DNA of 64,000 bases from Cloeon dipterum (taxonomy: Eukaryota > Arthropoda > Insecta > Ephemeroptera > Baetidae), in contig NC_088787.1 of the NCBI RefSeq assembly GCF_949628265.1, positions 18,652,501 through 18,716,500 on the forward strand, in the 5' to 3' direction. Positions 38,340 through 41,300 of the stretch are shown here, piece after piece. The position numbers and the translations under genes were made by a program. Every line of letters begins with the position of its first letter. Position 1 is the first letter of the stretch. The notes beneath the pieces were generated by a model, which worked only from the letters and a program-made list of their open reading frames with translations, searched no databases and was not told the origin of the DNA.

Positions 38340-41300
38340 ATGGTATGAAAAATTGATTTGCTAATTTTAATTTGCTAAAAATTGATCTTTTTGCTTTTAA
38401 AACTGTTGGTGTGAGTTAATGAGCGTGGTGTCACTTCTGTAAACCGCGAGTTCAATGTTCGTTGCGAACCCATTAGAGCTGCAACAAACGTTTGTGATGT
38501 CTATGGTTCAGCGAGCTCATGAGAAAATTTCAGACTGTCAAAAGTGTTCCCATCCCATTTATAACCGATTATTGCCTATCTCATTGTGTTTTTATTTTAA
38601 TCATAATGGTAGATGGTAGTTTCCTTAAAATTTTAATATTGAGATTTTTTAACATTAAAATAATATTTTTAATATTTCATTTGATTCCTGGTTTACCATT
38701 GGCAAACACAAAATGTCAAACTCTATTTTTAATATTTTATTTGATTCCAGGTTTACCATTGGCAAACACAAAATGTCAAACTCTCCGGAGTTGATGACAT
38801 GGTTTTGCTTCCTAAAATTTCCGAGGATGCCATTGTTGACAACCTCAAGAAAAGATATATGGACGACTACATTTTCGTATCCTTTTAAAATACGTACGCA
38901 CGCACTCTTTTGCCACCACTTCCTTGTTTGTTGAGAGCACACATGTGCGGTTTTTTTGCCTGGCCTACTCTTTGCCGTCATATTAAAAATATATAATGTA
39001 TCCCCAGCATTTATATTGGCTTATCTTGTGGTTAAAATATATTTAAATTTGTCGTCCCATATGGTCCGTGTTAAAAAGTAGTTTCCTTGATAAAATTTTA
39101 ATTTTAAAAAACTTAAACGTGGCCATTCAATATTAAAAATTAAAGAAAGTCCAATTCCAATTTCCTAAATATTTCCTAAACACCAAATATTTTTACCAGG
39201 ATAAGTGATATCTATGTTGAAATTAAAAATAAATTAAGAAAATATGTGAGTGTTACATAATATCGGTGTTTATCAAATCTGAAAGTGAAAATGAAAATAA
39301 TAATGATTTATAATTTTGATTGCTCCTGCAATGTTTTTCTTAATTTTTCTCCCTCATGTATATGCTCATCGTGGAAAACGTATTTAAAATTTCCTTAACT
39401 CTAAATATTAGACATGTATCGGCCCAGTACTGGTGTCAGTCAATCCTTTTAAGCAGATGCCCTATTTTGGGGAGAAGGAAATCCAACTTTACCAAGGCGC
39501 AGTCAGTCTATTGTCTATTAAATTTCAATATGAATCTAATTGTTTGTGTCCCAAGGCTCCGTATGAAAACCCGCCACATGTCTACGCCGTGGCTGATGAA
39601 ATGTACAGGAACATGATGATTGACAATGAAAGCCAGTGTGTCATCATTAGGTTGTAAATTTAATCCTAATAACTTCTGATCTAAAGATAAAAAATTGCAG
39701 TGGAGAATCTGGTGCTGGGAAGACGGTGGCTGCTAAGTACATCATGTCGTACATCTCGAGGGTGTCTGGCGGTGGCACCCGTGTGCAGCATATCAAAGAT
39801 GTGATTCTCGAGTCAAATCCTCTGCTTGAAGCTTTCGGGAATGCCAAAACCGTGAGAAACAACAACTCCAGCAGATTTGTAAGCCCATATCGAATTTCTA
39901 TTTGAGGAAGTGGCTTGACTGGCGTTCCCTGCAGGGAAAATACGTGGAAATTCAGTTTGGCAGTGGAGGTCAGCCTGAGGGAGGAAAAGTTTCCAATTTT
40001 CTTCTAGAGAAATCGAGGGTTGTTTCCCAGAACAAGGGAGAGAGGAATTTCCACATCTTTTACCAAATTTGCACTGGGGCCACTGCTGAAATGAAGCGTA
40101 AGTTTTATTTTTATTTAATTGAATCGCAGCTAATGTGCTTATTCAGAAAACCTTGGCATTGCTGAATTGGACTACTACAAATACTTGTGCTTTGGAGGGA
40201 ACAACCACAGAGTTGACGGGACAAATGACGCTCATGATTTCCAGGAGACGCTGCAAGGTATTATTTGTGTTCTTTCCGATCACATTTATTTGACTCCTGC
40301 TTCAGCCATGAGCGTGATGAGAATTTCCAAAACGGACCAGGACAACATCCTCAAGTTGACAGCTGGAGTTTTGCATCTTGGCAATGTTTCGTTCAAGGAG
40401 AGCGGCAACAATGCTGTTGTGGAAAATCAAGAGGGTTTGTAGCCTTTTAAAAATATCAACTTTTTTTGCGGTGTCTGTTTTTTCCTAGTAACAAACAAAC
40501 AGATAACTTAACTTTCAATAACAAATTTTTCTAAGTTGTTTTTTTGATCTTAGCATTGCAGTTTCCTGCCTACCTCTTCGACATTGACATTGCTCAACTG
40601 AACGCCAAACTTACCAGCAGACTATTTGACAGCAAGTGGGGAGGCAAGTCAGACAAAATAGACGTAAATTTGAACAAAGAGCAAGCTCTGTACGCACGAA
40701 ATGCCCTTGCTAAAGGAATCTACACTCGTATTTTTGATTACCTGGTCCAGGTATGTTGAATTGAAACGCCTTGCTAATATATTTGTTTGTGCTTTTATTT
40801 ACAATCACAGTCGTTGTCCACTCATTGATTTCAGAGCGTCAATAATGCAATGGTTACAAATATCGTCAGCAACAACACTGGAATTTTGGACATCTATGGT
40901 TTTGAGATCTTCGAGTCTAACGGATTCGAGCAGTTCTGCATCAATTTTGTGAATGAGAAGCTGCAGCAGATTTTCATCGAGCTCACCCTCAAGGCTGAGC
41001 AGGTAAGAAATATTTCATTTTTTTCTTATTGATTGCATGCTTGAAATTTTAGAGTGGATAAAAGTTAGTAATTTATTAAACTTACAAGCTAATTCAAATT
41101 ACCACGCATTCTACACAATTCGTCCAAAAATAATATAATAAAATGTTTAATTTATGTAAACAGACATTCGGCGCTTCATGCAAAAATACGATTTAGTTCA
41201 CTAGAGTGCACTAGGGATGTAAACTCACGGTGGGTCTGTGATAAATAACTGATTAGGAGAACAGCCCTCCAATCAAGCATGGAAGGGCTTTGTAGGGTGC

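What the first reader, a model, noticed from the sequence alone, without database searches (positions are those of the whole stretch)
38665..38784. Tandem duplication of a splice acceptor with the upstream copy silenced
Seen directly: two 60-bp copies in perfect register, 58 of 60 bases identical, covering intron end and exon start of myosin exon 2. One of only two differences changes the upstream acceptor CCAG to CCTG. Using the upstream acceptor would give a premature stop, so the AG loss may have been selected after the duplication. Near-identity points to a recent event.
Basis: partly seen in the sequence, partly recalled or inferred. Interest (0 to 1): 0.72.

Follow-up and report, generated by a model that had tools for sequence, protein, structure and literature searches.

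The report
Duplicated splice acceptor, upstream copy dead
A 60-base stretch spanning the end of the first intron and the start of the second exon of an animal myosin gene is present twice in a row, and the first copy has lost the AG needed for splicing, so the gene most likely still splices normally at the second copy: a neat but fairly ordinary small duplication.

Summary
Two head-to-tail 60-bp copies lie at 38664-38723 and 38724-38783 (repeat track 38664-38784), 58 of 60 identical. They differ at unit positions 15 (C/T) and 26 (T/A); the second makes the upstream acceptor CCTG instead of CCAG. The gene looks like a long-tailed class I myosin. The ATG exon joined to the downstream acceptor opens a 420-aa frame over ten modelled exons with 9 of 9 introns GT-AG. 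The upstream acceptor would give [14 protein letters not shown], then stop.

Best reading: a local tandem duplication lengthened intron 1 by 60 bp; its 33-bp exon copy became intronic; the only AG from 38644 to 38750 is the correct one. That the AG loss was selected is plausible but not shown (chance 3-7%). "Recent" is loose: about 0.1-21 million generations at an assumed rate. A TG acceptor 60 nt from its AG exceeds the 28-nt limit reported for human TG-AG pairs. No reads, RNA, other individuals or relatives were reachable, so assembly error, polymorphism and actual splicing are untested. It is a variant of known themes: tandem duplication near splice sites and first-AG acceptor choice.

The parts
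38340..38342 (+). Exon 1 coding part: the ATG alone, followed by donor GTATGA at 38343
   Evidence: Sequence and gene model; 5' end of the transcript not determined; another donor-like GTGAGT lies at 38243
38343..38750 (+). Intron 1, 408 nt, containing the whole upstream copy
   Evidence: Gene model, GT-AG
38664..38723 (+). Upstream copy of the 60-bp unit: 27 nt of intron end and 33 nt of exon start
38689..38690 (+). TG in place of the acceptor AG in the upstream copy
38724..38783 (+). Downstream copy of the unit, with intact CCAG
38749..38750 (+). Acceptor AG predicted to be used; the previous AG starts at 38642
38751..38876 (+). Exon 2, 42 codons, start of the myosin motor
39412..41002 (+). 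Exons 3-10 of the motor (to Pfam Myosin_head position 407 of 679)
60878..61048 (+). Later motor segment (Myosin_head positions 580-636), probably the same gene
   Evidence: exons between 41003 and 60877 not modelled
61713..62463 (+). TH1 tail domain in three pieces, probably the same gene
62988..63464 (+). Open frame with the first 27 of 48 positions of an SH3 domain, probably the same gene

Best explanation
A single local tandem duplication, with one base (T) of junction homology, copied 27 nt of intron end and 33 nt of exon start at intron 1 of a class I myosin gene. The upstream acceptor no longer works because its AG is TG. The spliceosome takes the first suitable AG after the branch point, and between 38644 and 38750 the only AG is the downstream one (38749-38750). 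The transcript is therefore spliced 38342/38751, the protein is unchanged, and the upstream copy, exon part included, is now plain intron; intron 1 grew by 60 nt. Shown from sequence: the copies, the two differences, the open frame, truncation on upstream use, absence of other AGs. Inferred: the splicing path, and that the AG loss came with or after the duplication and was favoured because an intact upstream AG would have been used (this last step I hold at about even odds).
For: Copies and differences. Ten modelled exons give 420 aa without a stop, 9 of 9 introns GT-AG, matching Myosin_head at E 5.1e-160. Upstream use stops after 14 codons counting the ATG. No AG starts between 38643 and 38748. 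Branch-point-like motifs lie 18 nt before the acceptor in both copies (TTAAT, A at 38672 and 38732) and at 38652 (TTAAC) outside the unit. First-AG choice after the branch point and splice defects from new AGs in that zone: passages of PMC1431707 and PMC7317903. One place in the assembly for the DNA and for exon 2.
Against: No RNA, read or comparative data. The AG-free distance of 107 nt is not special: intron 2 of the same gene has 126. The chance of hitting the dinucleotide is 3-7%, so selection is only suggested. Predicted unpaired probabilities also differ between the two sites (TG 0.16 and 0.05; AG 0.43 and 0.41), so RNA structure could contribute. Branch points are motif matches only.
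Confidence: 0.7

Rival explanations
1. Same duplication, but the loss of the upstream AG is neutral decay: the upstream acceptor was never competitive (for example because exon 2 is recognised through its own donor), so the substitution says nothing of selection.
For: Chance of 0.033-0.066 is not extreme for a case picked out for being odd; the other difference (C/T in a pyrimidine context) looks neutral.
Against: With an intact AG the upstream copy would have the same local context as the working one, apart from one C/T, and lie nearer the donor.
Confidence: 0.3
2. The two differences arose with the duplication or already existed as allelic differences (error-prone repair, or exchange between unlike alleles), so there was no stage with two intact acceptors.
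For: One genome cannot order the events; only two differences exist.
Against: None direct; a free-standing TG allele would lack its acceptor and be rare.
Confidence: 0.2
3. Assembly artefact: the genome has one copy.
For: No reads could be checked; near-identical tandem copies are a known type of assembly error (recalled).
Against: No N in the window, one place in a 10-contig assembly of 190 Mb; stacking of two alleles would require an allele without an acceptor.
Confidence: 0.08
4. The upstream TG is still used as a minor acceptor, giving a truncated, probably decayed transcript.
For: TG acceptors exist in human introns beside AGs (PMC2374985, section 12).
Against: That section reports a TG-AG distance limit of 28 nt and that human AG>TG mutants activated neighbouring AGs rather than the TG; here the distance is 60 nt.
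Confidence: 0.05

Closest known systems
Intron gain by tandem genomic duplication of an AGGT segment (PMC3443670 section 8; Drosophila cases in PMC2891723, passages)
   Same: Short tandem duplication carrying an AG/GT motif, with one exonic copy ending up in an intron
   Different: The unit lies across an existing acceptor; an existing intron is lengthened and no new intron appears
AG exclusion zone and first-AG choice (PMC1431707, PMC7317903; passages)
   Same: Loss of the upstream AG leaves an AG-free stretch up to the working acceptor
   Different: The published cases seen in the passages are human and concern AGs gained, or natural distant branch points, not an AG lost from a duplicated acceptor
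TG-AG alternative 3' splice sites (PMC2374985, section 12)
   Same: A TG in acceptor context upstream of an AG, in a first intron
   Different: 60 nt apart against a reported limit of 28 nt; no evidence of use

Membership tests
Intron gain by tandem genomic duplication | Duplicated segment contains AGGT | tested here: met
   The downstream copy reads CCAGGT; the upstream one now CCTGGT
Intron gain by tandem genomic duplication | Duplicated segment is exonic and a new intron arises between the copies | tested here: not met
   The unit is 27 nt intron and 33 nt exon; the gene model needs no new intron
TG-AG alternative 3' splice site pair | Distance of at most 28 nt (human) | tested here: not met
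   60 nt; limit from PMC2374985 section 12
TG-AG alternative 3' splice site pair | Both sites used in transcripts | not testable with these tools
   No RNA data
Acceptor with AG exclusion zone | No AG between branch point and working acceptor | tested here: met
   No AG starts from 38643 to 38748; branch point itself only a motif match
Long-tailed class I myosin (MYO1E/F type, name recalled) | Class I motor domain | tested here: met
   Myosin_head E 5.1e-160 over positions 1-407 of 679; the first 8 of the 60 solved chains shown are class I myosins
Long-tailed class I myosin (MYO1E/F type, name recalled) | TH1 tail and SH3 domain in the same gene | tested here: inconclusive
   TH1 at 61713-62463 and part of an SH3 in 62988-63464, same strand; the linking exons were not modelled

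The most novel reading that the evidence does not exclude
A compensated acceptor duplication caught soon after the event: a duplication that would have truncated the protein was rescued by loss of the upstream AG, leaving two copied branch-point regions feeding a single AG. It would be a route by which introns lengthen through copied exon, and a natural test of first-AG choice in an invertebrate.
Probability: 0.35. Interest if true: 0.45.

Novelty: new variant of a known kind. Interest (0 to 1): 0.3.

Why it matters
If the duplication came first and the AG loss rescued it, this is a clean natural example of one substitution restoring splicing at a duplicated acceptor and of intron growth by splice-site duplication. 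It would change no general rule: it follows from what is known of acceptor choice.

Tried and rejected
RNA structure as the selector: a 201-nt fold has z -2.16, with 5 of 200 shuffles at least as stable. Over intron 1 plus exon 2 the predicted unpaired probabilities are 0.16 and 0.05 for the upstream TG, 0.43 and 0.41 for the downstream AG, and 0.84 and 0.03 for the AG of a single-copy version. Weak and inconclusive; not excluded as a contributor.

Conservation of the upstream exon copy: 0 of 33 differences in the exon part against 2 of 27 in the intron part, Fisher P 0.20. No evidence of constraint.

Inverted repeats: 10 pairs in 37500-39000, AT-rich or short; none seemed to explain the duplication.

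Gene model: my first model misplaced the acceptor of exon 9 and broke the frame; corrected to 40554. In one search the start codon was entered one base late.

Species: the COX1 search gave one match under the cut-off (33.4 against 34.8 bits). Paper searches for an assembly of this size (10 of 2,609 listed; 8 of 26) gave none that I could tie to it. A mayfly is a guess from memory.

Literature: searches listed 15 of 20, 8 of 14, 12 of 3,055, 12 of 45 and 20 of 38 papers. By title and start of abstract I saw none that describes this case; I opened passages or sections of five papers only. That is no proof of absence.

Full report
Observation. The window holds two head-to-tail copies of a 60-bp unit at 38664-38723 and 38724-38783, 58 of 60 identical, without indels. 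The differences are C/T at unit position 15 and T/A at position 26; the latter makes CCTG at 38687-38690 where the downstream copy has CCAG at 38747-38750. Of the shifts 20-599 bp, no other gives a 60-bp stretch of the window with 50 or more matches.

How unusual. Tandem Repeats Finder on 21 sequences (the window and 20 stretches of 10 kb from contigs C1 and C2 of the same assembly, 264,000 bases in all) gave 21 rows, 13 of them with a period of 20 or more. Four of the 20 stretches were placed on other myosin loci, so the sample is not random. Of the 21 rows only this one has a period of 30 or more with at least 90% matches; the 200 kb outside the window have none. The rate is poorly bounded: 0.1-21 per Mb from 1 in 264 kb, which counts the ascertained case. 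In an assembly of 190 Mb a few such duplications across acceptors would not be surprising (inference).

The gene. Ten modelled exons from the ATG at 38340 to 41002 give 420 aa without a stop, with 9 of 9 introns GT-AG. The protein matches Pfam Myosin_head positions 1-407 at E 5.1e-160; the first 8 of the 60 solved chains shown are class I myosins. A later motor segment lies at 60878-61048, TH1 pieces at 61713-62463 and the first part of an SH3 domain in 62988-63464, all on the + strand. This fits a long-tailed class I myosin, but the exons between 41003 and 60877 were not modelled. Likeness of the N-terminus to vertebrate MYO1E is recalled, not tested. The DNA and exon 2 each have one match in the assembly (the tool scores only its best candidates). 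The 5' end of the transcript is not determined: a donor-like GTGAGT also lies at 38243.

What splicing would do. From the ATG to the downstream acceptor the protein starts [17 protein letters not shown]. To the upstream site it would read the same 12 residues, then Y, F and a stop. No AG starts between 38643 and 38748. Of nine branch-point-like motifs (yTnAy) from 38600 to 38750, TTAAC with its A at 38652 lies outside the unit, 38 nt before the end of the upstream acceptor, and TTAAT at 38672 and 38732 lies 18 nt before each acceptor. By the rule that the first AG after the branch point is preferred (passages of PMC1431707, and PMC7317903), an intact upstream AG would have been expected to win. 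With TG there, the downstream site is the only AG. The AG-free distance of 107 nt is not itself special: intron 2 of the gene has 126.

Could the TG still work? In human introns TG acceptors were found only with a nearby AG, at most 28 nt away, and AG>TG mutants activated neighbouring AGs rather than the TG (PMC2374985, section 12). Here the distance is 60 nt. Minor use is unlikely but untested.

Selection and age. With two differences placed at random on 60 sites, the chance that at least one strikes the acceptor dinucleotide is 0.066, or 0.033 for the upstream copy. That is suggestive only, and a duplication that kept both AGs might not have survived to be seen. If one difference is taken as neutral on about 93 free sites (my estimate), the age is about 3.8 million generations (0.1-21 million) at an assumed 2.8e-9 per site per generation; with 1e-9 and 5e-9 the centre moves to 11 and 2.2 million. 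So it need not be very recent and may be shared by related species.

RNA structure. The 201-nt region folds somewhat better than shuffles (z -2.16), and the downstream AG is predicted more open than the upstream TG (0.43 and 0.41 against 0.16 and 0.05). This could help the downstream site but rests on one prediction.

Relation to known things. Tandem duplication of AGGT segments is a documented route of intron gain (PMC3443670, section 8; PMC2891723, passages). Here the unit lies across an existing acceptor and no new intron is formed, so it is not a member of that class. I file it as a new variant of a known kind, of modest interest.

Limits. No reads, transcripts, other individuals or related animals were examined. 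By their descriptions the other sequence collections hold prokaryotes, viruses, phages and plasmids, and I ran no search of them. Assembly error, polymorphism and true splice use remain open.

Noticed in passing
window 38604-38621 and 38743-38761: In the predicted fold of 38600-38800 an element upstream in intron 1 pairs with the downstream acceptor and the first exon bases; the upstream copy carries nearly the same target sequence. May be chance.
   Followed up: partly
window 41003-60877: About 20 kb without a modelled exon separates the first ten myosin exons from the later motor segment; motor profile positions 408-579 were not among the scored matches listed here.
   Followed up: no
window 8284-8344: Tandem repeat of a 21-bp unit, 2.9 copies, 92% matches; the period is a multiple of three, so it may be coding.
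   Followed up: no
window 9218-10792 (-), 35235-36695 (-), 5558-6367 (+): Open frames matching GMC oxidoreductase, DC-STAMP-like protein and, just under the cut-off (24.9 against 25.8 bits), an odorant receptor of the 7tm_6 family.
   Followed up: no
own assembly G000, C1:23761540-23765164 (-): Seven neighbouring matches to nearly the same motor segment (Myosin_head positions about 377-440) in a row, as in muscle myosin genes with mutually exclusive exons (comparison recalled).
   Followed up: no
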